This document shows, one piece after another, positions 21,283 to 35,160 of a stretch of DNA of 35,160 nucleotides (its first letter is position 1; each line of letters opens with the position of its first letter). The DNA comes from Deltaproteobacteria bacterium (lineage in GTDB: Bacteria; Myxococcota_A; UBA9160; PR03). The stretch is taken from NCBI GenBank assembly GCA_035063765.1, contig JAPSFT010000034.1:1-35160 (forward strand). Reading direction: 5' to 3'. Under the pieces are notes generated by a model. The model was not told the origin of the DNA. It made no database searches and saw only the letters and a list, made by a program, of their open reading frames with translations. Both the position numbers and the translations under genes were made by a program.

Positions 21283-22254
21283 ATGGATCGGAAGCGCGCC
21301 AGTCTGGCATTCGTGGCGGTATCGATCGCGTGGATCGTGGGTCTCGGCTGCACGCCGGTGGGTCTGGGAGGCGATCCGATCGTCTGGCCGAAGGCGGCAC
21401 GGCTCGGTGACACGCTCGCGATGTCGCTCGATTCGAACTACGTGCCGGTCTTGGGGGGGTACTACGAGAAGTACAATCTCTCGGTCGACAACGTGACGCT
21501 CCAGATCAAGCAGGGGACGACGGTCCTCGCGACCGCCACGCCGCGCGCGGTCTTCGACGGCTTGTCGGCTCCGGCAGGCGTGCTGAACGTCACCAAGGCC
21601 GGCCCCTTCCTCACCATCGTCGTCTTCGACCTGCCGACCTCGATCTCGGCGGCCTTCCCCGTGGCGACGAAGGTGCACATGCTCGTGAACGGGGTGGCGC
21701 CGACCTGGAACTCGATCGGGAGCCTGGAGATCCTCGGGACGGGCGGGAGCCCGATCGTCTTCACCAGCGATTCCAATCCAACCGGCCTCGGCCCGCGCCC
21801 GACGCTGCGACTCCAGGGTCGCGCCGCGACGGCTCAGGTCGATGGCTTCGACCCGGAGTGGGAGATCGGCTCGATCGAGTTCACGCTCCAGTACCCGAGC
21901 GGCGCCGTTTCGCAGCCGGACGTGTTCCCCCTCACCGAAGCGAGCCGGGCGGTAGCCTTCACCAGCACGGGCGATGCGCCGGGCAGCGTCCGGATCTTCG
22001 TCGCCGATCCGCGTGGCTTCGTCCTCCCGATCGTCCCCCCGCCCTACCCCGACGCCGAACGGGTGGGCGAAGGCCCACTGCTCGACGTGACCTTCACGAA
22101 GGCGCCGGGCGTCGGCTTCGCCGCCACCGACTTCACGATCCGAGATCTCGAGGTTCGCGACCTGGATGGGAATCTGCTCACTCCGGTCTACACGCCGGGG
22201 ACCGACACCACGCACTACTTCACGCGGATCGCCCGCAAGCACCTCGCGGAGTAG
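21283..22254 (+). CDS. Putative lipoprotein of unknown function
   Basis: A 323-residue exported protein. The N-terminus has a basic start (MDRKR), a hydrophobic stretch and VGLGC, with C23 as a likely lipidation site. The mature part is rich in Thr, Val and Gly and reads as beta-sandwich-type sequence, for example VDNVTLQIKQGTTVLATATP and KVHMLVNGVAPTWNSIGSLE. No enzyme motif is visible. GGGAGGAAG lies two bases before the ATG, a strong site though close. The next gene starts 5 bp after the stop. A structural or surface-anchoring role beside the dockerin-like protein is inferred from context only. Confidence 0.7.
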   Translation: MDRKRASLAFVAVSIAWIVGLGCTPVGLGGDPIVWPKAARLGDTLAMSLDSNYVPVLGGYYEKYNLSVDNVTLQIKQGTTVLATATPRAVFDGLSAPAGVLNVTKAGPFLTIVVFDLPTSISAAFPVATKVHMLVNGVAPTWNSIGSLEILGTGGSPIVFTSDSNPTGLGPRPTLRLQGRAATAQVDGFDPEWEIGSIEFTLQYPSGAVSQPDVFPLTEASRAVAFTSTGDAPGSVRIFVADPRGFVLPIVPPPYPDAERVGEGPLLDVTFTKAPGVGFAATDFTIRDLEVRDLDGNLLTPVYTPGTDTTHYFTRIARKHLAE

Positions 22255-22259
22255 CGGCC

Positions 22260-25200
22260 ATGAGCGCTGGAACGAAGGCTCGAACGGTCGTGTGGGGGGT
22301 CCCTGTCTTCCTGCTGGGTGTTCTGTTCGGGCCGTCCGTTTCGTCGGCTGCGCTCGGAGACGTCGACGAGGACGGCTCCCTGTCGATGGCGGACGCCTTG
22401 CGCGTACAGCGCCACGTGGCAGGAGAGCTGTCCCTGAGCGCTGCAGAGGAGGCGGCCGCGGACGTCGCTCCCTGGAGCGCGGTCGACGGTCCCGCACCGG
22501 ATGGGGAGGTCGATGCCGGGGACGTAGTGGTCCTGCTGCGAGCGATCTCCGGCGAGATCTCGTTGGTCCCGCCCCCGGTACTGGACGCGATCCCGTCGCC
22601 GACCACGGCCAATCCGCAGGCCGTCACCGGCTCGAGCGGCTCGGGCTACGAGGTGACGCTCTACGTCAACGGTCAGCCCCAGGCGACGACGACCGCGAGC
22701 GCTGGGACCGGCGCGTTTTCGTTCTCGGCCATCCTCGACGACGCGAACGAGATCCATGCGATCGCTTCGGATGGCGTTTCGACCAGCGACCCGTCGACCT
22801 CCCAGAACGTCGCCTACCAAAACACGACGCCCCGGATCCAGGGCGGCACCGTCGCGGCGGGGGTCCACGTCTGGACTCCGGGCAACCCTGCCACCCCGTA
22901 TTCGGTGACGAGCACCCTCGTGGTTCCAACCGGGGCGACGCTGATCCTTCAGCCAGGAGTCGAGCTGCGTTTCCTCGGGTCCACGCAGACGACTGGCGCT
23001 GCGGAGCTCCTGGTCAACGGCACGCTCCGCATACAGGGGACCGCAGGCGGAGTCGTGCGCCTCGTCCCGGAAACCGCAGGGACCTTTTGGAACGGGATCC
23101 GCGTGAACGGTACCTCCGCCACGGCGACGATCGAATCGGCCTACATCGAGCGGGTATTCAACGGGATCCGGGCCGAACAGGCGTGGGTCTCGGTGCGCAA
23201 CAGCGAGATCCGGAACTTCGCCGAGGGCAGCTCCTGCTCGCTGTGTGTCGGCATTCGCTTCGACAATGCGCCGGGCGAGGCGGTAGGGAACCTGATCCAC
23301 CGGGATCCTCCCACGCGGCGTGGGTCCGCCATCCATGTCGACGAGGCATCGCCGCTCCTGCAGGGCAACATCATTCGCCGGGCCGACGAGGGCATGCGAA
23401 TCGTCGGGCCGCTCGTGGCGCCGGCGGCGACTCCCTCGGTGCTCGGCAACCTCATCGAGGACAACAACCGAGGAATCCAGATCGAGCGCCTTGCCAGTCC
23501 AACCATCAGCGGCGTCAACGTCATTCGCAGCAACACTGGGACCGGGATCAACGTCCAGGCGTCCAGCCGTGAACCGATGCCGGTGATCAACGGCAACGAC
23601 ATCTACGCCAACGGCCCAGCCGGCGTCCAGCAGAACCTGGCCTTCAGTGGCTACGTGGACGCGTCGGACCTGGTGGTTAACGCCGAAGGCAACTGGTGGG
23701 GATTCGCGAGCGCCTGGGAGATCTCGCGTCGGGTCTGGGATTTCAAGGTCGACGATAGCTACCTCGACCGGCCTCATGCCGACGTGGTGCCGTTCCTCGA
23801 CGGTCCAGTGGCCGCGGGCGGAGGCCCGGTTGCAGGGTCCTTCCTGCACGGGCCGGTGACCCAGACCCTGACGACCCTGTCTCCCGGCACGGTGTACGAC
23901 GTCGTCGGCTCGATCGTCGTGCCGGAGGGCAAGACGCTCAGCATTCCGCAGAACGTGACGCTCCGCATCGCCTGGGATGCAGAGATCCTCGTCGACGGAC
24001 TGTTGAGCGTGGCGGGGGCGCCGGGGTCACGAGTCGTGCTGACTTCTCTCTCGCCGTCGGCGCCCTCGCTCGCCGACTACTGGGACGGGCTCGTCGTCCG
24101 CTCGAGCCCGTCCCTTTCGATCGATCAGGCCAGGATCCTCTACGCGAACCAGCCCATTTTCGCGACCAACACCCCGGTAACGGTTCGGGACAGCGAGATC
24201 ACCTACTTCAATGCCGGTGGAATCCGGGTCGTCGACGGCACCGCGACGATCACGGGGAACCTGATCGATCGCGAGAGCTCCACGAGCGGTCACGTAGTCC
24301 GCCTCGAGGATACGGGTGGAACGATCAGCGGGAATACGATCAGTCAGGGAAGCTTCGGGATCTACCTGATCCATGGATCGAGTCCGCTGATCGAGAACAA
24401 CACGATCACGGGCAATGGGACGGGTTTGTATCTCCAGGGGAGCGGCTCGGCGGGGGGCAACCCCGTTCCGGTGCTCCGCCACAATCGAATCTACGCGAAC
24501 TCGCAACGCAACCTGAACGTCCTGCAGTACTACCACCTGGGTTCGACGGACCGGGTGGACGCCCGAGAAAACTTCTGGGGCACGGAGACTCCTGCTGGAG
24601 TCCGGGCAACGATCCTCGCCAATGACTTGGAAAGCGGTTTTCCGATCGCAGTGGATTTCTCGAACTTCACCAACTTCGATTTCGTGGTGGTCCCCGGGAC
24701 CCATCTCACCAACACCGTGACGGCCGTGCGCCACGATCCATTGCGATTCCGCCCGGGCGCCGGCGAGACCGGCAACGTCCGCTTCGAGCTCTTGGCACCC
24801 TCGTCAGTGACCGTACGAATCTACGACGAGGCGACGAACGCCCTGACGCGTGAGATCGTCACGAGTCTGCCGGCGGGCGATCAGGTCGTGCCCTGGGATG
24901 GGCGTGATGGCTCCGGCGTCTACGCACCGGCCAACGCCTACTACTACCGCATCGATGCGACCGATGGCGCGAATGTCGGCATCTACACCACGCCGTCGAC
25001 CATGGCCAACCCGGTGACCGGTGTGTTCGGCGCCGTGCCGAACGCGTACAACGTCTACGCGAACGACTTCGTGGACTTCCAGATGGACGCGCTGAACGCG
25101 GGAGCACGCCCGCGGATCGAGGTGAGGCCGGACGGGGAGCCGACGTTCCGGATCGACGGCGGGCGAGCCTACCCGAAGGGCGTCTCGAGGGTCGTCTGGG

Positions 25201-25700
25201 ACGGACGTCGCCCGGACGGCTCGCTGATCGGCAACAAATTGGCCTACGTGTACGTCGCGGTCGATTCCGGGAACGCGATCGTCCCCAACAGCTTCGTGGT
25301 CGAGCCCGCGCCGACCGTGGGAGGCGTCGCGCCGGTCGTCGAGGTGAAGGCGGACCCCTATCGCGTCCATCACAGCTACGACCAGATCTCCCGCATCGCC
25401 TACCGCATCGATCAGCCAGCCGTGATCACGCTCAAGCTGCTGCCGCCGGGGGTCGCCGACTTCGCGGATCCGAGCGCGGTGGTGTTGATCGGAGGCGAGC
25501 TCCAGCAGGCGCAGAGCGACGGGGTGCCGATCGACCACGTCGCCGAATGGAGCGGCTACGACCCGAACGATCCGACGCCGGCGAACGTCAACGAGATCCG
25601 CACGCTCGCGGACGGAGTTTCCACCTTTGCGATCCAGGCCGTCAGCGCCGTGACCGGTCACAGCACGCTCTATCGCGGCGTGATCGACGTGCGGCGGTGA
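22260..25700 (+). CDS. Exported protein: dockerin-like repeats, parallel beta-helices, FlgD-Ig-like domains
   Basis: A 1146-residue secreted protein. A signal peptide spans about 1-31 (ends VSSAA). Residues 32-100 hold two dockerin-like segments: GDVDEDGSLSMADALRVQRH, with a calcium-loop pattern of acidic residues, and DGEVDAGDVVVLLRAISGE. Two right-handed beta-helix regions follow (about 280-480 and 600-775), with NosD/PbH1-type repeats and the closing motifs GNWWG and ENFWG. From about 838 on are FlgD-type Ig-like domains (SVTVRIYDEATN, then VVPWDGRDGSGVYAPANAYY). Parts of the two helix regions look like internal duplicates. Such proteins bind or cleave polysaccharide or act as surface scaffolds; no catalytic site can be named. 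Its stop overlaps the next start by 4 bp. Confidence 0.85.
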   Translation: MSAGTKARTVVWGVPVFLLGVLFGPSVSSAALGDVDEDGSLSMADALRVQRHVAGELSLSAAEEAAADVAPWSAVDGPAPDGEVDAGDVVVLLRAISGEISLVPPPVLDAIPSPTTANPQAVTGSSGSGYEVTLYVNGQPQATTTASAGTGAFSFSAILDDANEIHAIASDGVSTSDPSTSQNVAYQNTTPRIQGGTVAAGVHVWTPGNPATPYSVTSTLVVPTGATLILQPGVELRFLGSTQTTGAAELLVNGTLRIQGTAGGVVRLVPETAGTFWNGIRVNGTSATATIESAYIERVFNGIRAEQAWVSVRNSEIRNFAEGSSCSLCVGIRFDNAPGEAVGNLIHRDPPTRRGSAIHVDEASPLLQGNIIRRADEGMRIVGPLVAPAATPSVLGNLIEDNNRGIQIERLASPTISGVNVIRSNTGTGINVQASSREPMPVINGNDIYANGPAGVQQNLAFSGYVDASDLVVNAEGNWWGFASAWEISRRVWDFKVDDSYLDRPHADVVPFLDGPVAAGGGPVAGSFLHGPVTQTLTTLSPGTVYDVVGSIVVPEGKTLSIPQNVTLRIAWDAEILVDGLLSVAGAPGSRVVLTSLSPSAPSLADYWDGLVVRSSPSLSIDQARILYANQPIFATNTPVTVRDSEITYFNAGGIRVVDGTATITGNLIDRESSTSGHVVRLEDTGGTISGNTISQGSFGIYLIHGSSPLIENNTITGNGTGLYLQGSGSAGGNPVPVLRHNRIYANSQRNLNVLQYYHLGSTDRVDARENFWGTETPAGVRATILANDLESGFPIAVDFSNFTNFDFVVVPGTHLTNTVTAVRHDPLRFRPGAGETGNVRFELLAPSSVTVRIYDEATNALTREIVTSLPAGDQVVPWDGRDGSGVYAPANAYYYRIDATDGANVGIYTTPSTMANPVTGVFGAVPNAYNVYANDFVDFQMDALNAGARPRIEVRPDGEPTFRIDGGRAYPKGVSRVVWDGRRPDGSLIGNKLAYVYVAVDSGNAIVPNSFVVEPAPTVGGVAPVVEVKADPYRVHHSYDQISRIAYRIDQPAVITLKLLPPGVADFADPSAVVLIGGELQQAQSDGVPIDHVAEWSGYDPNDPTPANVNEIRTLADGVSTFAIQAVSAVTGHSTLYRGVIDVRR

Positions 25701-26578
25701 GGATACAAGGCATCGCCGCACTCGCCGTCTGCGTCGTCGGCGGCTTTGCGGGACAGGCTTCGGGCGCGGACGAGAGCGGCGGACGCATCGGTTACCTGGC
25801 GCCCGCGAACGGCTATTGGCAGGCCTGGATCCAGGAGCTGGGAGGCGACCCCCGGCAGATCACGGGATCCCCCGGCGACAAGACGCGCTGCTCGTGGTTC
25901 CCCGACGGTAAGGCAATGCTGGTGAGCTCGACCGCCGGCGAGGTGGTGCGCGTCGGACTCGACTCGCTCGAGGAGACGAAGCTGCCGCTTCCGCGCGGAA
26001 TCCATGACGCGGCTGTTTCGCCCGATGGAGACAGGATCGCGTTCTCGATGAGTCCCGGCGGGACCCGCGACGCGAACGAGATCTTCGTCGCCGCGCCCGA
26101 CGGGTCCGCGATGACGCGGCTCACGCGTCTCGGCGCGTTGCAGCACGAGCCTGCCTGGAGCCCGGACGGGAAGTGGATCTATTTCCTGTCCGGAGACGGC
26201 GGCCAGGCGCACGACATCTGGCGCGTGTCGGTCGACGGCTCGGCGCAGGAGCAGCTGACCGCGGGCGAGCTGTATCACTTCGACGTGGCAGCGGGGCCCC
26301 GCGGCCTGCTGGCCTTCTCGGGCAATCGCGGCGGCCGCTACGCGATCTGGGTGAAGCCGGCTGCGGGTGCGTCGCGCGTCATCGCCGGCGACGCCGCGTT
26401 CGCGGCTGGGCCGTCGTTCGCGGGCGATGGGCGTGAGCTGGCCTTCGAGCGCGCCGTCGACGGCGGCGCCAGCGCGATCTTTCGAACTCCTGTCGATGGA
26501 AGCGGGTCCGAGCGCCTGGTGGTCGGCGCCCCCGCTCGGCGGCCGTGCTGGGAACCGGCTCGGCGAAGGCTGCGATGA
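25697..26578 (+). CDS. TolB/WD40-like beta-propeller exported protein
   Basis: A 293-residue protein with an N-terminal signal peptide (about 1-24, ends GQASGA) and repeated PD40/TolB-type blades, for example AAVSPDGDRIAFSMSPGG, EPAWSPDGKWIYFLSGDGG and FAGDGRELAFERAVDGG. About five to six blades fit the length, so it is probably periplasmic or secreted. The start is GTG at 25697, overlapping the previous stop (GTGA), and the stop overlaps the next ATG (ATGA). This strict coupling suggests the propeller is made in balance with its neighbours, perhaps as a binding partner in export or assembly. Confidence 0.82.
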   Translation: MRIQGIAALAVCVVGGFAGQASGADESGGRIGYLAPANGYWQAWIQELGGDPRQITGSPGDKTRCSWFPDGKAMLVSSTAGEVVRVGLDSLEETKLPLPRGIHDAAVSPDGDRIAFSMSPGGTRDANEIFVAAPDGSAMTRLTRLGALQHEPAWSPDGKWIYFLSGDGGQAHDIWRVSVDGSAQEQLTAGELYHFDVAAGPRGLLAFSGNRGGRYAIWVKPAAGASRVIAGDAAFAAGPSFAGDGRELAFERAVDGGASAIFRTPVDGSGSERLVVGAPARRPCWEPARRRLR

Positions 26579-27669
26579 GGCTCCTGGCCGCCTTCCTCTT
26601 GCTCGCTTGGGTCCTGTCGCCCCCCCGCGCTCCGGCGTCCGAGATCACACAGGTCTCGCACGATCCGGCGGCCTTCGATCCTGCGAAGGACGAGATCGTC
26701 AGGATCCGCTTCCACCTAGGTCAGCCTGGATCGGTGACCCTTCGAATCTTCGACGCGCGGAACCTCCTGGTGCGCGAGATCCGAAGTCGCGGACCGTCGT
26801 CGGCCGGCGTGCAGGAGCTCACCTGGGACGGCGAGGATCAAGCAGGCAGGCGTGTCCCGCCGGAGGCCTACCACTACACGCTGGTCGTGCGCGACGAGGC
26901 CGGAATCGAGGTCGAGCACGACGTGACGGACCTCACGGGCGGCGAGCTCCTCGCGGTTCCGGACGCCACCTGGAACTCCGACCGAGGCGCGATCGAATAC
27001 GACCTTCCGAAGTCGGCCCGGCTCAACATGCGCATCGGCCTGAAGGGCGATGGCCCGATGTTAGGGACGCTGCTCGATTGGGTGCCGCGGCTCCCCGGAC
27101 GGCACTCGCGGGTCTGGGACGGCAAGGACGCCTCCCGTGTCCTCGACCTGCGCGAGCATCCCGAGCTCAGGATCTCGATCCTCGCCTACTCGCTGCCGGA
27201 CAACACGATCCTGGTGCTGCCGCCCTCCAACCGGAGCGAATGGATCGCGGCGCTGCCGTGGGGCGAGACGCGACGCCTTCCCAAGGCCGAGCGGCCCCGT
27301 CGCATGTACGACTTCGCCGCGCAAGCGGCTGAGGACCGCCGCGACGTGTCCATCACGCTCGTGCCTGCGGAGCCGCTCGCGCGTACCGAGGATGGCGATC
27401 CGATCGTGCGTGGGCCCATAGGAATCCGGATGGACGTCGAGGATCGCGACCGGGCGCGGATGCAGGCGGAGCGCTTCGAGACGGTCTTCTACGTCAACGG
27501 GAGCTACCAGACCGAGACGGAGCTCGGCTTCCTGCCGGCGACCTGGGTCTGGGATCCGGGGAGCGTCGCGGAAGGCATCCACTACATCACGGGGAACCTG
27601 CGTGGCTACGAAGGGCACTTCGGAGCGGCAACCCTGCGGGTTTTTGTCGATCCCGGCGGCACGAGATGA
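26575..27669 (+). CDS. Exported FlgD-Ig-like protein
   Basis: A 364-residue protein with a signal peptide (about 1-22, ends APAS). Residues about 42-110 form a FlgD-type Ig-like domain: VRIRFHLGQPGSVTLRIFDA, then QELTWDGEDQAGRRVPPEAYHYTLVV. Similar beta-rich modules follow, with a second RVWDGKDASRV near 179-189. The C-terminal part has no recognised motif. FlgD-type domains occur in flagellar hook caps and in many secreted proteins; here, with no flagellar gene nearby, the latter applies. It overlaps the propeller gene by 4 bp and precedes the RHS gene by 10 bp. Confidence 0.8.
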   Translation: MRLLAAFLLLAWVLSPPRAPASEITQVSHDPAAFDPAKDEIVRIRFHLGQPGSVTLRIFDARNLLVREIRSRGPSSAGVQELTWDGEDQAGRRVPPEAYHYTLVVRDEAGIEVEHDVTDLTGGELLAVPDATWNSDRGAIEYDLPKSARLNMRIGLKGDGPMLGTLLDWVPRLPGRHSRVWDGKDASRVLDLREHPELRISILAYSLPDNTILVLPPSNRSEWIAALPWGETRRLPKAERPRRMYDFAAQAAEDRRDVSITLVPAEPLARTEDGDPIVRGPIGIRMDVEDRDRARMQAERFETVFYVNGSYQTETELGFLPATWVWDPGSVAEGIHYITGNLRGYEGHFGAATLRVFVDPGGTR

Positions 27670-27679
27670 GGTACGGGCG

Positions 27680-30600
27680 ATGACACGAATGGGCCGATGG
27701 ATCTCGATGGCGCTCGCGCTCGCTCTCGCCGCGCCCGGCGTCGCCGCGAGGGCCGATGACTTCGGCGGTCCGACGCTGTCCGACCCCAACCAACCCGATC
27801 CGCCGCCCGATCCGTGCAATGCGGACCCGTCCGCCGCGGGATGCCCGCCGTGCAGCGGCAACGGCGCGACCGACGAGGCAGGGGAGGGCGACGAGGGCCA
27901 TCCGATCAGCGTCGTAAGCGGGCGCTTCTACCACGAAGAGACGGACCTGGTCGTCAACGGCGTCCATCCGATCGAGCTGCGCCGGCGTTACGACAGCCAG
28001 TCCTACTACGATTCGCCGCTCGGTCACGGCTGGGCCTGGTCGTTCGACCTCCAGCTCTTCGAGTACCCCGACAACTCGGTGATCGTGCGCACGAGCTGTG
28101 GCTACAAGCACCGCTTCGTGTTTACCGGCGGCGCGTACCAGACGCCGGCAGGGCAGCAGACCCGCCTCACCGCCTACCCGGACGGCACCTATGCCCTCCG
28201 CTTTCCACGCAACCGGCGGGCGCTGTTCGACGTGCAGGGTCGACTCACGGCCTGGGAGGATCCGAACGGCAACCGCCTGGAGATGATCTACGACCCGGCC
28301 GGAAGGCTCCCGCTCGTCGGGTCCTCGGACTTCTCGGTGGACCCGCTCGCGCCGTCGACGGTGGCGTATGTGTTCCGGCTCACCCAGGTCCGGGAACGCC
28401 TGGCCGATGGGACCTTGACCGGGAGGGCCGTCAGCTTCGCCTACGATCCGACGACGGGGCGTCTCGAATCGGCGACCGCGTCCGACGGCAGAGCCGTGGA
28501 GTACGTCCACGACGTCCACGCCGGCACGGGCCTGACCTTGGGCAACCTGACCCAGGTCCTGGGCCTCGAGGGCATCGTCACGACCTACGCCTATCAGGAT
28601 GCAAACGATCCCCATAACCTGACGAGCCTCGACTCCGGTGCCACGACGATCCCGCACGTCAATACCTACGACGGTCAGGACCGTGTGACGCGCCAGACGT
28701 TCGGCATCGGCTCGACCGGTCATCAACGCTTCGACTTCGATTACTCCCAGCCGCTGGCAACCCGCGTCACGCGCTGGGTCTACAACGCGGCCGGCAGCCA
28801 ACAGCGCACGGCGGTGACCCGCTACACCTACGACGCCGGCGGCCGGCTCCTGACCCACACCGACGCGCTCGGCCACCAGACGACGTGGGTGCGCGACGCA
28901 AGCGGCCTCACCGATCGCGTGGAGGTCCGGGAGAACACCGGGACCGTGGGCGCACCGGTCCTGGTCCTGGTCCGCACCGTCGATCTCCACTACGACGCCG
29001 ACGGAAACCTCGACCAGCGCGTGACCGCCCTCGACGGTGGCGAGACGATCACCGAGAGCTGGACGTGGGAGCAGCACTGGCTGGCCTCCCATGAGGTCGT
29101 GTCGAGCGCCGATCCCGGCAAGCCCTTCCGCACCGAGCACACCTTCCATCGCACCGGCCCGGGCGCGAGCGATCCGATCACGAACGTGAAGGAGATCAAG
29201 CGTCGTCGAGACGATGGAACGTTCGAGACGACGCTCCTGACCTACGACGCCTACGGCCAGCTCGCAACGATCACACCACCCGCTGTCGAGCCGGACGACG
29301 GCCTCCAGATCGTCCGAACCCATTTTCCTGCCACTGGTCCCAACCCCGGCTTGCTCCAGGAGGTAAGGATCGAGCTCGACGGGGTCGAGGACGATCATCT
29401 GCGTCGAGAGTTCACGTACGACGCCCGCGGCTTCGTGGCGACGCTCACCCAGACAGGCGGACCCGAAGGATCGCCGCGCGCCGACGTCACGACTTACACG
29501 TGGGACGATCTGGGACGTCTCACCGAGCTCGGCAACGCGCTCGGCGAGGCGACGCTCTACACCTACAGCAGTCCGACCGATGGGCTCGGCGACCCGTCGC
29601 TGGCGCCCCCCGGCCGCTACCTGACGCAGATCGAGATCGGCCGGACGCAGGCAGACGGGGAAGGCCAGCAGCGCCGCTTCCGCTACGACGGTCGCGGGCG
29701 GCTCAAGAAGGTCGAGCGCAAGAACGACGCGGGGACGTGGTCCGACTATTGGACGTTCACCTACGACAGCGACGGGAACCGGCTCACCGCCGTCGATGCC
29801 ACCAACTCGATCTCGCGTGATGTCTCGTACACGTACGACGGCCTGGAGCGGCTCGTCACGTTCACGAACGCCGTGTCGCAATCCACGCAGTTCGCCTACG
29901 ACGTGTTCGGGAAGCGCACGCGCATCACCGACCCGGCCGGCCGCAAGACGAGCTACGCGTACGATGATCGCGACCGGCTGCTCACCGTCACGCAGGAAGG
30001 CACGTCTGCATTTCCGCTGCCCGCGCCTCTCGTGACCGCCTTCGGCTACGACGCCGCCGGCAACGTGACGACGGTGACCGACCCGAAGAGCCAGGTCACG
30101 ACCTACGGCTACGACGCCCTCTCACGCCTCACGTCGATCGAGCAAGAGCTCGGACAGACCGTGACCTACGCGTACGATGGACGTGGGCGCCTCGACGCGG
30201 TGACCAACGCCCGAGGCAACGTGCTGCGCCACGCGTACGAGGCTTGGGGCGCTCTCGCCGCCGTCCAGCACTTCGTGGATACAGCGGCGGATACGCCGGT
30301 CCGCACCGTCTCCTATGACTACGATCTCGCCGGCAACGTCACCTCTGCCAGCGACACGGACCTCCAGCCTGGTCCGCTCTACAGCTATGTCTACGACCCG
30401 CTGGGGCGCGTCGACACCGCCACCGCCCACTACCTCCCGGGCGGCAACCGCGTCCTCGACTCCAGCTACGACCGCTTCGGCAACCGAAGCGAGCTCGAGC
30501 TCATGCACGGCTCCGAGACGCTGACCCACGCCTGGACCTACGACGACCTCGACAGGCTCACCCAGGCGAACTTCCCGGGCGGCCAGACCCTCGACTTGCA

Positions 30601-32095
30601 GTACTTCGCGAACGATGACCTCCAGACCCTGACCCACGGCAACGGCACGACGACCTCGTACACCTACTTCAACCAGGGCCCGGTCTCGACGATCACGGTC
30701 CAGAACGGCTCGTCGCAGCTCCACCAGCTCAACTACACTCTCGACACCGTGATGAACGTCGACCAGGTGCGCGAGGAGTTCACGACGACGACCCAGTACC
30801 TCTACGAATATGCCTACGACGGCGCGAACCGCCTCACGAGCGCGAACTATCCGAACTCGATGCCGGCCGGCTTCCCCCTCTTGCAGGACGAGGCCTTCGC
30901 GTATGACCCGGCCGGCAATCGCGAGAACCCGAGCGAGCTTAACGCCTACGACTACGACGCCAACAACCGCATCCTCGCGAGCACTGGCCGGAGCTACGCC
31001 TTCGACGCCGACGGAAGCCTCGCGGCGATCCACCCCGGGCAGCCCAACGAGATCAGTCTCGGGCACGATTTCGTCAACCGACTCCGCTCCTACAGCGACC
31101 CGACCGCCGGCACTACGGCGGGCTACGCCTACGACCCCTTCGGCCGCCGCCTGCGCAAGACTGTGAACGGCCTGACGAGCTGGTTCTTGTGGGAGGACGA
31201 CGTCCTGCTCGCCGAGTACGACGGAGCCGGCAACAGGACGCGCCGCTACGCCTACGCGGGCGGCTGGGCCCCCGTGCAGACCGCGACTGGGAGCGGCGCC
31301 GGCGAGTCGATCTACGACGTGCACGTGGACCACCTCTCTACGCCGAAGCTGCTGACTGTGGCGAACCGCTCGGCGGCGTGGCGCGGGATGTACCGAGCCT
31401 TCGGGGAAGTGTCGGTGCAGGCGGGAGCGGCGACGTCTTTCGACCTTCGCTTCCAGGGCCAGGTTGCGGATGCGGAAAGTGGGCTGCACTACAACCGGTT
31501 CAGGCACTTCGATGCAAGCACGGGCCGATTCCCCTCGGCCGATCCGATCTACCAGCGCGGCGGCATCAACCTCTACGAGTACGCTCGCTCGAATCCTGTG
31601 ACGCTGTCGGACCGTCTTGGACTGTGTCCGCCGTGTGCAGCGGCAGCGATGGGCCCTGCGGTGCCATCCCTCGCTGGTCTAGGGCAAGCAGCACTTGTCG
31701 GGCTCGGTGCTGCATTTGCAGCTGTTGCCGGTTCCTACCATCAACACTCGGGAGAGGACCCCTTGCCACCGCCACCGCCACCTTCGGAGGCAGGCGACAC
31801 TCCAGCGGACGGCGATGAGCCAGCTCCGATCTGTTATGACCCTGATCAGGCGGCACTCCGGGATCTCGTCAATGACGCCACTTTCGGTGGCAGGATACCT
31901 CTTGATCTCGATGACGCCGAGACAGTTCTGGATTGGGCAGGAGAGCTTGGATACCCCGGAGCAAGGGCGAGCCCAGGCGACGTCTCGGACCCGTCGAACT
32001 GGCTTGGGCATCCGGGACGGCCGCCTCACATTCATCTTCCAGGTGCGGGACGCGGTGGCCACGTGCCAGTCAGACCTGGGCTTCCGCCTCGATGA
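27680..32095 (+). CDS. Sec-exported RHS/YD-repeat protein with a candidate C-terminal toxin
   Basis: A 1471-residue protein. A signal peptide spans about 1-26. A Pro/Cys-rich linker leads to a DUF6531-type start (from about 73, GHPISVVSGRFYHEETDLVV). More than 15 YD repeats (YDxxGRL type) follow, forming the usual beta-shell. The RHS-associated core ends RFPSADPIYQRGGINLYEY and DRLGL (D1311-L1315). Typical proteins have DPxGL at this cleavage point, so Arg replaces Pro. Beyond it are about 156 residues with a hydrophobic Ala/Gly helix, a Pro run and a compact tail containing VLDWAGELGYPG, SNWLG and PHIHLPGAGRGGHVPV (H1450, H1452, H1461). That tail looks like a polymorphic toxin domain with a His cluster; its activity is unknown. 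The stop overlaps the next gene. Confidence 0.88.
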   Translation: MTRMGRWISMALALALAAPGVAARADDFGGPTLSDPNQPDPPPDPCNADPSAAGCPPCSGNGATDEAGEGDEGHPISVVSGRFYHEETDLVVNGVHPIELRRRYDSQSYYDSPLGHGWAWSFDLQLFEYPDNSVIVRTSCGYKHRFVFTGGAYQTPAGQQTRLTAYPDGTYALRFPRNRRALFDVQGRLTAWEDPNGNRLEMIYDPAGRLPLVGSSDFSVDPLAPSTVAYVFRLTQVRERLADGTLTGRAVSFAYDPTTGRLESATASDGRAVEYVHDVHAGTGLTLGNLTQVLGLEGIVTTYAYQDANDPHNLTSLDSGATTIPHVNTYDGQDRVTRQTFGIGSTGHQRFDFDYSQPLATRVTRWVYNAAGSQQRTAVTRYTYDAGGRLLTHTDALGHQTTWVRDASGLTDRVEVRENTGTVGAPVLVLVRTVDLHYDADGNLDQRVTALDGGETITESWTWEQHWLASHEVVSSADPGKPFRTEHTFHRTGPGASDPITNVKEIKRRRDDGTFETTLLTYDAYGQLATITPPAVEPDDGLQIVRTHFPATGPNPGLLQEVRIELDGVEDDHLRREFTYDARGFVATLTQTGGPEGSPRADVTTYTWDDLGRLTELGNALGEATLYTYSSPTDGLGDPSLAPPGRYLTQIEIGRTQADGEGQQRRFRYDGRGRLKKVERKNDAGTWSDYWTFTYDSDGNRLTAVDATNSISRDVSYTYDGLERLVTFTNAVSQSTQFAYDVFGKRTRITDPAGRKTSYAYDDRDRLLTVTQEGTSAFPLPAPLVTAFGYDAAGNVTTVTDPKSQVTTYGYDALSRLTSIEQELGQTVTYAYDGRGRLDAVTNARGNVLRHAYEAWGALAAVQHFVDTAADTPVRTVSYDYDLAGNVTSASDTDLQPGPLYSYVYDPLGRVDTATAHYLPGGNRVLDSSYDRFGNRSELELMHGSETLTHAWTYDDLDRLTQANFPGGQTLDLQYFANDDLQTLTHGNGTTTSYTYFNQGPVSTITVQNGSSQLHQLNYTLDTVMNVDQVREEFTTTTQYLYEYAYDGANRLTSANYPNSMPAGFPLLQDEAFAYDPAGNRENPSELNAYDYDANNRILASTGRSYAFDADGSLAAIHPGQPNEISLGHDFVNRLRSYSDPTAGTTAGYAYDPFGRRLRKTVNGLTSWFLWEDDVLLAEYDGAGNRTRRYAYAGGWAPVQTATGSGAGESIYDVHVDHLSTPKLLTVANRSAAWRGMYRAFGEVSVQAGAATSFDLRFQGQVADAESGLHYNRFRHFDASTGRFPSADPIYQRGGINLYEYARSNPVTLSDRLGLCPPCAAAAMGPAVPSLAGLGQAALVGLGAAFAAVAGSYHQHSGEDPLPPPPPPSEAGDTPADGDEPAPICYDPDQAALRDLVNDATFGGRIPLDLDDAETVLDWAGELGYPGARASPGDVSDPSNWLGHPGRPPHIHLPGAGRGGHVPVRPGLPPR

Positions 32096-32736
32096 GGGTC
32101 TTGGAGAGGGAGATCGATCTCTGCGGCTTCTTGGTCGTACGCGTGGCTCCCTTGAACTTTGACGCTGAGGGGCGCGGCGCCTTCCCAGCCCAGCCGCCAC
32201 GAGTTGGTGATGTCTTCTACGCTGGCGTCGATCGAATGGCTTGGTTCGATCTGGATGAGGAGATCATTTCTGGGGCGGCTCCACCGAGCCTCGCCACGGT
32301 TCGAGAGCGAGTTCGAAGAGCGTGCCATGACCTGACGGGACTCGAACTGACTCGCAATCTCGGTGACGCGATTGAGATCGCCGCGTTTTGCAACGCAACC
32401 ACTCCCCGCTGCGAAATCATTGGGCTGTGGTCGCCGAGACTTGCAGAGATCAAGAGCTTCTCGATGACAACTAGTGCAACTCCACTTGGATACGACCCCG
32501 TATCCTTGGGGCACGGATCCCTATTGCGCGAGGGGCTGTTCGCGAGGCCGGAGCTGTTCGGCGAGTTTGTAGAGCAGTTGAACGCTGATGGGCTCTTCCC
32601 AGAAATGGAGCGCGCAATGGTCTACGTGAGGCGTTACATCGATCTGTCAAGAGCAGGGGCTGTTGAGCCGCTTATCTCGCAACCCTATGGAATCGACCTC
32701 CTTCGTGTCGCTCGCGTGAGTCCCCCGCTCGTCTAG
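32092..32736 (+). CDS. Candidate immunity protein for the RHS toxin tail
   Basis: A 214-residue protein with no signal peptide or membrane helix, so it is cytosolic. I do not recognise a family. It is rich in Arg, Glu, Asp and Leu and has segments such as LATVRERVRRACHDLTGLEL and VYVRRYIDLSRAGAVEPLIS. The ATG at 32092 overlaps the RHS TGA (ATGA). That coupling, the place directly behind a variable RHS tail, and the lower GC content shared with the tail are the marks of an immunity gene. An upstream in-frame ATG at 31933 lies inside the RHS gene and is less likely. It is the last gene of the operon. The 78 bp to the IS remnant show no clear terminator. Confidence 0.72.
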   Translation: MRVLEREIDLCGFLVVRVAPLNFDAEGRGAFPAQPPRVGDVFYAGVDRMAWFDLDEEIISGAAPPSLATVRERVRRACHDLTGLELTRNLGDAIEIAAFCNATTPRCEIIGLWSPRLAEIKSFSMTTSATPLGYDPVSLGHGSLLREGLFARPELFGEFVEQLNADGLFPEMERAMVYVRRYIDLSRAGAVEPLISQPYGIDLLRVARVSPPLV

Positions 32737-32814: not shown

Positions 32815-32894
32815 GTAACCGCTCAGCGAACCCCATGTTTCGCTCTGCTCTCGCCGGCGCGACGATCCTTTCCGAGGAGGATCACCCGATGGGA
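32815..32894 (+). mobile_element. 80-bp remnant of a second IS66-family copy
   Basis: The segment begins GTAACCGCTCAG (32815-32826). Its next 68 bases are the exact reverse complement of 35093-35160, the tnpA end of the neighbouring element. It includes that element's ribosome site (GAGGAGG) and the first ATG of tnpA, and breaks off where GTAACCGCTCAG begins again at 32895. It therefore represents the tnpA-proximal end of another copy in the opposite direction. Confidence 0.75.
32827..32894. repeat. Left arm of a 68-bp perfect inverted repeat
   Basis: All 68 bases equal the reverse complement of 35093-35160. Identity stops exactly at the inner side of GATGGGA; it may continue past the window on the outer side. 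It is far longer than the terminal repeats usual for IS66 elements. Confidence 0.95.
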
Positions 32895-32962
32895 GTAACC
32901 GCTCAGTAAACGCTCGACGAACACAGGTCGTGATTGACGAGAGGCGCGGGTCGGGCCGGCGT

Positions 32963-34361
32963 TCAGTGGGTGCTGGCGAGGTGGGCGCGGTCGAGGCGGT
33001 GTGGGAGGAGTAGATCGAAGTGCTCGGGACGAGTGGCCTTTGGGATCTCGGTGAAGAGGTGGCGTAGGTAGGCGTAGGGATCGAGGCCGTTCGCCTTGGC
33101 GGTCTGGACGAGGCTGTAGAGGTTGGCGCTCGCCTGGGCGCCGCCGACCGTGTCGGCGAAGAGCCAGTTTTTGCGGCCGAGCGCGAAGGGGCGGATGGCG
33201 TTCTCGACCGCGTTCGTGTCGATCGGGATGCGCCCGTCGTCGAGATAGCGCACGAGCTTCGGCCACTGGCGGGCGACGTAGCCGAGCGCCTGGCCGGTGA
33301 GGCTCTGGGGCGGGACGCTCGGGAGCGCCGTGTCGAGCCAGGCGCGCAGCTGCGCGACGAGCGGCCGGGCCTCGCGCTGGCGGACGTCGTGGCGCTCTTC
33401 GGCGCTCGCGCCGGCAACCGTGCGCTCGATCCGGTAGAGGCGCTGGATCCACGCGAGCCCCTGCTGGGCGCGGCTCTTGCGCAGCGAGGGCGAGGGGCCC
33501 TTGTCGCCCGCCTGGCCCTTCAGGGCCTCGTGGAAGCGCCGCCTCGCCGCGCTGCACCCAGACGTAGGAGAGGCTCTCGGCCGGCTTGCCGGGCTCTTTC
33601 AGCACCTGGAAGCGCGACTCGTCGCACTGCACGAAGCCAGACGCGAGGATCTCCTCGCGCATGCGGTTCACGAGCGGCTGCACGAGCTCGCCGCAGCGCA
33701 CCATCCACATGGCCAGGGTGGCCCGCGAGAGATCGATCCCGAGGCGTCCGAGGATCTGCTCCTGGCGGTAGAGCGGGAGCGCATCGGCGTACTTCGAGAC
33801 CGCCACGTAGGCGAGGAGCGACGGCGAGGCCAGGCTCTTCGGGATCGGTTGCGGGGGGAGCGGGGCCGTGTGCACGCCGGTCTTGCAGGTGGGGCAGCCG
33901 TAGCGGGGCCGCACGTGGACGAGCACCCGGGCCGTGGCCGGGACGAACTCGAGCTGCTCACTGCTCTCGCGGCCGATCTCGACGAGCGCGCTCCCATCGT
34001 GCGGGCAGACCTTCTCGGCCTCGGGCAGGTCGTGGAGGATCTCCTCGCGGGGCATCCAGGCCGGCAGCGGCCGCCGGCCGCGCGGGGTCCGCGTGTGGGC
34101 CGCGACTGCGATGCCCGGGGCGTCGGCGGCCGCGCGCTCTGCCGCCGCGAGCACTTCGGCCTCGTTGAAGAGTCCGAGCTGGCTCCGGTGGCTCTGCTCG
34201 CTCTTCGCCCCGAAGCGCTGGCTCTTCAGCAGCCGGATGTACTCGCGCAGCTGCGCGATCTCGACGTCTCGCTCGGAGAGAGCGGCATCGAGCGCGATCA
34301 CACGCGCTCGAAGGCTCTCGACATCGCTCGGGATCGCCCCCATCTCTACCACGGAGCGCAT
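32963..34361 (-). pseudogene. tnpC: IS66 transposase tnpC, inactivated by internal deletion and frameshift
   Basis: The N-terminal part (from ATG 34361 to about 33545) shows a coiled-coil start, IS66 zinc-finger motifs (CPHDGS and YGCPTCKTG) and the first catalytic Asp in VQCDESRF (D247). It ends in YVWVQRGE. The sequence then continues in another frame as ARRRFHEALKGQAGDKG and runs to NAVENAIRPFALGRKNWLF, which carries the catalytic Glu, and stops at 32963. In complete relatives about 55 residues lie between these blocks, including the DGY segment with the second catalytic Asp and the CWAH motif. Those are missing here. The junction lies near 33537-33553. The protein cannot be made as one chain and lacks a catalytic residue. 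Confidence 0.88.
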
Positions 34362-34388
34362 CGTAACACAGTTGCGTGCGAGAGTGCA

Positions 34389-34742
34389 CTACCGGACCGA
34401 AGAAAACGACAGCTCCGCGTGCGGCCGCAGCCGGAACACGTCGATGCCGTCGAGCAGCCAGTTGAGCTCGCGCCCCGTCACCGCGAGCACCGCGTCCTCG
34501 CCGCCGCGCGGCCACGGGAAGCGATCCTTCTCGAGCCGCTTCTGCCACAACACGAAGCCGTTGCGCTCCCAGACGAGCAGCTTCACCTGGTCGCGCCGCC
34601 GGTTGCAGAAGCCGAAGACGTGAGCCGAGAAGGGATCGAGCGCCAGATCCTCGGCCACCAGCGCCGAGAGCCCGTTGATTGCCTTGCGGAAGTCCACCGC
34701 CTCGCGGCACAGGTGGACGCGCACCGTCTCGAGCGGCCGCAT
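34389..34742 (-). CDS. tnpB: IS66 accessory protein TnpB (Orf2)
   Basis: A 117-residue IS66 Orf2-like protein needed for transposition in family members that encode it; its biochemical role is not settled. The family pattern is plain: VHLCREAVDFRKAINGLSAL, then DPFSAHVFGFCNRRRDQVKL and GFVLWQKRLEKDRFPWP. The ATG at 34742 overlaps the tnpA stop by 4 bp (ATGA). It is complete and tnpC follows after 27 bp. Confidence 0.95.
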   Translation of the reverse strand: MRPLETVRVHLCREAVDFRKAINGLSALVAEDLALDPFSAHVFGFCNRRRDQVKLLVWERNGFVLWQKRLEKDRFPWPRGGEDAVLAVTGRELNWLLDGIDVFRLRPHAELSFSSVR

Positions 34743-35098
34743 CAGAGCCTCGCAAGCATCGCCAACGCAGCGGCCAGCTCCCCGGCGCCCTCGACCACGA
34801 CGCCGTTCGGGAGCTGCGCCCGCCAGCGGCTCGGCGGCTCGACGGTCGCCGCTGTCGCCGCCCGCACCTCGACGAAGCGGCCCTGCGTCCTCGCGGTCCG
34901 AGCCCTCCGGGCGCGCTCGCTCGGCGCCCAATGCCCCTTCCGCCGCAGCTCCTTCGCCGCTTGGTAGAGCGCATGCTCGGACAGCCGGTGGCGCCTCGCG
35001 TAGGCCCGCACCGCCACCTTCTCGCGCGCCGCCTTCCGAAGGTGCCCCAACCACTCCCGCTGGCGCGGCGTCACCGTGCTCGATCGCTTGCTTCCCAT
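34742..35098 (-). CDS. tnpA: IS66 accessory protein TnpA (Orf1)
   Basis: A 118-residue protein with an N-terminal helix-turn-helix (about 8-55: TPRQREWLGHLRKAAREKV, then RRHRLSEHALYQAAKELRRK). It matches the small DNA-binding Orf1 of IS66 elements. The ATG at 35098 has GAGGAGG seven bases upstream. An in-frame ATG at 35152 lies in the terminal repeat and lacks such a site. The start codon and ribosome site are also duplicated in the remnant at 32815-32894. Confidence 0.9.
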   Translation of the reverse strand: MGSKRSSTVTPRQREWLGHLRKAAREKVAVRAYARRHRLSEHALYQAAKELRRKGHWAPSERARRARTARTQGRFVEVRAATAATVEPPSRWRAQLPNGVVVEGAGELAAALAMLARL

Positions 35099-35160
35099 CG
35101 GGTGATCCTCCTCGGAAAGGATCGTCGCGCCGGCGAGAGCAGAGCGAAACATGGGGTTCG
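35093..35160. repeat. Right arm of the 68-bp inverted repeat
   Basis: Exact reverse complement of 32827-32894. It holds the tnpA start codon, its ribosome site and the DNA up to the window edge. The IS end itself (expected CTGAGCGGTTAC) would follow just outside the window. Confidence 0.95.

What the first reader, a model, noticed from the sequence alone, without database searches (positions are those of the whole stretch)
31616..32736. RHS C-terminal tail and overlapping gene: a candidate new toxin-immunity pair
After the RHS core (ends DRLGL, residue 1315) comes a 156-residue variable tail with a His cluster (PHIHLPG, GGHVPV). The next ATG overlaps the RHS stop by 4 bp and opens a signal-less 214-residue gene of no known family. 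Position, coupling and shared lower GC are what polymorphic toxin systems show. The tail resembles toxin tails with conserved His and Trp, but I cannot name its activity.
Basis: partly seen in the sequence, partly recalled or inferred. Interest (0 to 1): 0.82.

Follow-up and report, generated by a model that had tools for sequence, protein, structure and literature searches.

The report
Rhs toxin tail with immunity gene
A large bacterial cell-surface (Rhs) protein carries a swapped-in tail, probably a toxin used against rival bacteria, followed directly by a gene that probably protects its owner; the arrangement is well known, but this toxin and protector match no catalogued family and a related pair sits in a bacterium of another phylum.

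Summary
The RHS ORF (27680-32095, 1471 aa) has a TIGR03696 core ending at residue 1315, a 156-aa tail, and a 214-aa gene overlapping its stop by ATGA. Neither tail nor partner matches any Pfam, NCBIfam, PHROGs or PADLOC model, or a PDB sequence. Three new facts support the toxin-immunity reading. (1) Codon usage breaks sharply at the core end: the best GC3 change-point is codon 1301 (log-likelihood gain 54; largest of 500 permutations 8.6). Four-fold GC3 is 0.89 in the core, 0.49 in the tail, 0.58 in the partner, so tail and partner look like one imported cassette. (2) A motif scan of 84,980 genomes found two other tails sharing SNW, PHIH and GAGRxGHVPV. One, in an Acidobacteria MAG, is a broken orphan module followed by a homologue of the partner (33% identity); the other has a different downstream ORF. 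(3) Across the order, related RHS cores carry unrelated tails. I file it as a new, rare member of a known kind: an Rhs polymorphic toxin-immunity module with an uncatalogued toxin domain and immunity family. The activity is not shown; a small histidine-dependent RNase is my best guess. Structure predictions were too weak to use.

The parts
27680..32095 (+). RHS/YD-repeat protein, 1471 aa, with a probable N-terminal Sec signal peptide (by eye), DUF6531 and 19 RHS repeats
   Evidence: translation; Pfam PF05593 1.4e-58, PF20148 1.7e-16; TIGR03696 2.1e-22
31391..31624 (+). Rhs-associated core domain, residues 1238-1315, ending PVTLSDRLGL (the canonical PxxxxDPxGL with the second P replaced by R)
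   Evidence: motif definition from PMC8636562 and PMC3150448
31625..31813 (+). Variable linker: CPPC, a hydrophobic Ala/Gly/Val stretch, then a proline-rich stretch
   Evidence: GC3 already low, 0.51
31889..32092 (+). Candidate toxin domain, residues 1404-1471, with conserved DDAETVLDWA, SNW, PHIH and GAGRxGHVPV, ending at PR-stop
   Evidence: alignment A1 with L088 and L089; substitutions mostly at third codon positions
32092..32736 (+). Candidate immunity gene, 214 aa, overlapping the RHS stop by 4 bp
   Evidence: homologue directly after the tail in L089, E 5e-17, BLASTP 75 bits, 32% over 173 positions; low 4-fold GC3 0.58
32816..35160 (-). IS66-type element that follows the pair and runs into the contig end (flank, not part of the module)
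   Evidence: Pfam TnpB_IS66 3e-38 and DDE_Tnp_IS66; 68-nt perfect inverted repeat

Best explanation
The tail (residues 1316-1471, catalytic part about 1404-1471) is the interchangeable C-terminal toxin of an exported Rhs protein, and the 214-aa gene is its cognate immunity protein. Inferred steps: the Rhs shell is exported through Sec, encloses the tail, releases it by aspartyl autocleavage near SDRLGL, and the small domain enters a neighbouring cell and acts there. The partner stays in the producer's cytoplasm and binds the toxin. Shown here: module anatomy, imported composition, conservation of the tail as protein in three genomes, and co-conservation of the partner in one other phylum. Inferred only: toxicity, delivery, cleavage, immunity. 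My best guess for the activity is a metal-independent RNase using conserved His residues (HxH and GHVP) with Arg; I put that at about 0.35.
For: The core ends at residue 1315 and the GC3 change-point is codon 1301, with gain 54 against at most 8.6 in 500 permutations; tail and partner both depart from the core (Fisher p 3e-20 and 2e-14). L089 carries a tail relative (E 2e-10) with the partner's relative (E 5e-17), whose start codon lies about 10 bp after the tail's stop. L088 carries a second tail relative, E 3e-17. Between tails, third codon positions differ at 0.63-0.71 and second positions at 0.21-0.26, so the protein is under selection. RHS cores in 12 of 80 genomes of the order carry tails unrelated to each other and to this one. 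Literature: Rhs-CT regions differ in GC and codon bias from the shell (PMC8636562) and are followed by immunity genes (PMC3150448).
Against: Only one other locus has the partner. L089 is broken (tail in two frames, partner frameshifted) and L088 is an orphan fragment with a different downstream ORF. The second core motif is DRLGL, not DPxGL. AlphaFold2 models are poor (pLDDT 45 and 42) and Foldseek found nothing. No activity can be assigned by homology.
Confidence: 0.82

Rival explanations
1. The tail is a non-toxic surface or adhesion extension of the RHS protein, and the downstream gene is an unrelated gene or a folding helper.
For: No toxin family matches. The neighbouring upstream genes are dockerin/beta-helix, PD40 and FlgD-Ig surface-type proteins, so the RHS protein may serve a surface role.
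Against: Sharp codon-usage break shared by tail and partner; tail and partner conserved together in another phylum, apart from any intact full-length gene; polar HxH/GHVP conservation resembles an active site.
Confidence: 0.1
2. The module is a once-functional toxin-immunity pair that is now silent or weakened, as both known relatives are; the DRLGL change and the adjacent IS66 mark decay.
For: L088 and L089 are orphan or broken copies. The core motif departs from PxxxxDPxGL. IS66 begins about 80 bp downstream.
Against: In the window both frames are intact and coupled by ATGA, and the SNW, PHIH and GAGRxGHVPV residues are complete.
Confidence: 0.12
3. The tail acts by another chemistry than RNase cleavage, for example as a DNase, a peptidase or an NAD/nucleotide-attacking enzyme, still paired with the partner as immunity protein (a rival to the activity guess only).
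For: His-rich motifs serve many toxin folds in the Zhang et al. 2012 catalogue (PMC3482391); the fold could not be modelled.
Against: No HNH, JAB, ART or peptidase model matches. The His, Arg and xH[IV]P pattern is closest on paper to families predicted as metal-independent RNases (Ntox30 'RxH, R, THIP').
Confidence: 0.5

Closest known systems
Rhs-CT/RhsI toxin-immunity modules (Poole et al. 2011, PMC3150448)
   Same: Conserved YD core, abrupt variable tail, small gene directly after it, orphan CT/immunity copies in other genomes, IS elements nearby
   Different: Tail and partner match no listed family; core motif is DRLGL; no VgrG, PAAR or T6SS part was found on the protein, and it starts with a probable Sec signal
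Ntox30 (PF15532; predicted metal-independent RNase toxin, motif RxH, R, THIP in PMC3482391)
   Same: Order of an [RH]xH pair, an Arg, then [TG]H[IV]P; found after RHS repeats
   Different: No HMM match to the tail at E 10; Ntox30 is called all-beta, whereas the tail looks helix first, then short strands (low-confidence model)
Ntox50 (predicted BECR-fold RNase, H, K, HxVP in PMC3482391)
   Same: C-terminal His next to VP
   Different: No HMM match; spacing differs (HVP, not HxVP); Ntox50 is not listed with RHS repeats
Bacterial teneurin-like proteins with C-terminal toxin and immunity gene (PMC13018210)
   Same: Sec-exported YD-shell protein with variable toxin tail and downstream immunity gene
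   Different: No teneurin-type extra domain was detected in this protein by Pfam; full superfold membership was not tested

Membership tests
Rhs polymorphic toxin-immunity module | RHS/YD repeats and an Rhs-associated core | tested here: met
   PF05593 1.4e-58, TIGR03696 2.1e-22
Rhs polymorphic toxin-immunity module | PxxxxDPxGL border motif | tested here: inconclusive
   PVTLSDRLGL: first P, D and GL kept, second P is R; relatives in the order have DPLGL, DPNGL or DSMGL
Rhs polymorphic toxin-immunity module | Tail differs in composition from the core and varies between related cores | tested here: met
   change-point at codon 1301; unrelated tails across the order
Rhs polymorphic toxin-immunity module | Small gene directly downstream that travels with the tail | tested here: met
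   ATGA overlap; homologue beside the tail in L089; but L088 has a different ORF
Rhs polymorphic toxin-immunity module | Tail is toxic and partner neutralises it | not testable with these tools
   needs expression
Ntox30 (PF15532) | match to the family HMM | tested here: not met
   hmmscan of the tail at E up to 10 gave no family; PF15532 also not found in 68 genomes of the phylum, though the controls rang nowhere
Any catalogued immunity family (Imm, SUKH, SuFu, Barstar and others in Pfam/NCBIfam) | match of the 214-aa protein to a family HMM | tested here: not met
   no hits at E up to 10; the L089 homologue also has none

The most novel reading that the evidence does not exclude
The tail founds a new toxin superfamily with its own fold and catalytic site (HxH plus GAGRxGHVPV), neutralised by a new immunity family, and carried across phyla as cassettes.
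Probability: 0.2. Interest if true: 0.62.

Novelty: new member of a known kind. Interest (0 to 1): 0.42.

Why it matters
It adds an uncatalogued toxin domain with a short, sharply conserved motif, and its likely antidote, to the Rhs arsenal of poorly studied bacteria. The motif gives a handle for finding the family in metagenomes and a small (about 70-aa) target for structure and mechanism. The codon break mapped close to the core end is a clear single-locus picture of cassette exchange.

Tried and rejected
Weak protein matches from genome searches were read and are chance: wrong frames, no motif, E near the limit. The plasmid hit in Mycolicibacterium is unannotated, lacks the motif and was dropped. 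Viral-contig motif hits are chance; the one covers 11 residues only. Of 49 motif hits in genomes, 47 are chance. Partner searches in viral contigs, plasmids and phages were empty. Structure models of tail and partner are below usable confidence; Foldseek on the partner gave nothing with E under 1. Ntox30 was considered for the motif and rejected as membership. The broken L089 reading frames were left as they are and not joined.

Full report
Observation. The RHS frame runs from 27680 to 32095 and encodes 1471 residues. It carries 19 RHS repeats and DUF6531, and its Rhs-associated core ends at residue 1315. The tail is residues 1316-1471: CPPC, a hydrophobic stretch, a proline-rich stretch, then about 70 residues ending PHIHLPGAGRGGHVPVRPGLPPR. 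The next gene starts at 32092 inside ATGA and encodes 214 residues.

No catalogued family. Tail and partner give no toxin or immunity match in Pfam or NCBIfam at E up to 10, none in PHROGs or PADLOC, and no credible PDB sequence match. The genome holds one clear copy of each.

Composition. Position-specific GC shows the tail is foreign to its gene. GC3 stays at 0.74-0.98 per 50 codons over 1300 codons, then falls to 0.38-0.58. A likelihood change-point lies at codon 1301 (gain 54; largest in 500 permutations 8.6). At four-fold sites GC3 is 0.887 in the core, 0.486 in the tail and 0.583 in the partner; five other genes of the window lie at 0.79-0.97. Published work states that Rhs-CT regions differ from the shell in GC and codon bias (PMC8636562).

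Relatives. Ordinary searches with the tail found nothing. I therefore scanned genome contigs with a degenerate motif H[IV]x[LIVFM]xGxGxxGH[IV]P. Of 49 hits, two are real. L088 (MAG labelled Acidimicrobiia) has a 74-residue frame, E 3e-17. L089 (MAG labelled Acidobacteria) has a tail fragment, E 2e-10, and directly after it a relative of the partner, E 5e-17. The alignment keeps R, D, PSNW, PHIH and GAGRxGHVPV in all three. The two partners share 33% of aligned residues, among them YAGxDRxxWFD and a SLLxEGLF block. Between the tails third positions change about two and a half to three times as often as second positions, so the conserved thing is the protein.

State of the relatives. L089 is a decayed orphan module: its tail lies in two frames and its partner has a frame break near its start. 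It sits beside RHS repeats and another small gene pair. L088 is an orphan fragment, followed by a different 133-aa ORF of no family. The partner is thus co-conserved once, and replaced or lost once.

Rarity. Profile A1 found no further member among 91 genomes of the class, 396 of the Acidobacteria MAG's phylum, 396 of the L088 MAG's phylum and 199 of a planctomycete MAG's phylum. Single-sequence searches found none in 379 genomes of the host phylum. Searches of large sets score only the best candidates per genome, so distant members may be missed.

Polymorphism. Searching 80 genomes of the order with the core end found RHS proteins in 12, the window's own included. The others match the core at about 28-52% identity, and their tails do not resemble the window's. 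One (L128) carries an HTHG motif like that of JAB-type tails. This is what an exchangeable tail predicts, though these cores are too far apart to show one exchange event.

Mechanism. The most likely reading is an exported Rhs shell that carries a small toxin, released near SDRLGL, and an immunity protein made with it. Cleavage in a studied Rhs protein uses an aspartate in the second of two DPLGL motifs 17 residues apart (PMC8636562). Here the second motif keeps D1311 but reads DRLGL, and an earlier DP (D1288) lies 23 residues upstream, close to the published spacing. Cleavage is therefore plausible, not shown. For the activity, two conserved histidines in HxH, one in GHVP, and conserved arginines point to acid-base chemistry. 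On paper this resembles Ntox30 (RxH, R, THIP), predicted to be a metal-independent RNase (PMC3482391), but the HMM does not match. I put an RNase at about 0.35.

Structure. AlphaFold2 gave pLDDT 45 for the tail (three sequences) and 42 for the partner (two sequences). Foldseek on the partner model found nothing. These results carry no weight either way.

Verdict. It is a new, rare member of a well-known kind, not a new kind of system.

Noticed in passing
32816-35160: IS66-type element right after the pair. A 68-nt perfect inverted repeat joins 32827-32894 and the contig end 35093-35160, and GTAACCGCTCAG occurs twice (32816 and about 32895), suggesting a nested or rearranged copy or an assembly fold-back. 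The transposase appears split into two frames.
   Followed up: partly
21411-27669: Upstream of the RHS gene lie a large beta-helix/dockerin/FlgD-Ig protein, a PD40 propeller protein and another FlgD-Ig protein, closely spaced or overlapping, perhaps one operon with the RHS gene.
   Followed up: partly
L089:547-1403: A second small gene pair (118 aa and 167 aa, the latter with a weak TPR match) lies after the orphan tail module and before an RHS fragment; it may be another orphan toxin-immunity module with no family match.
   Followed up: partly
L088:5979-6418: A 133-aa ORF of no family directly after the orphan tail, preceded by a short duplicated stretch; possibly an alternative immunity gene for this tail.
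   Followed up: partly
L128 (end of the RHS frame): An RHS tail in the same order carries HTHG like the Tox-JAB-2 motif and is followed by a signal-bearing 137-aa gene overlapping its stop by 4 bp.
   Followed up: no
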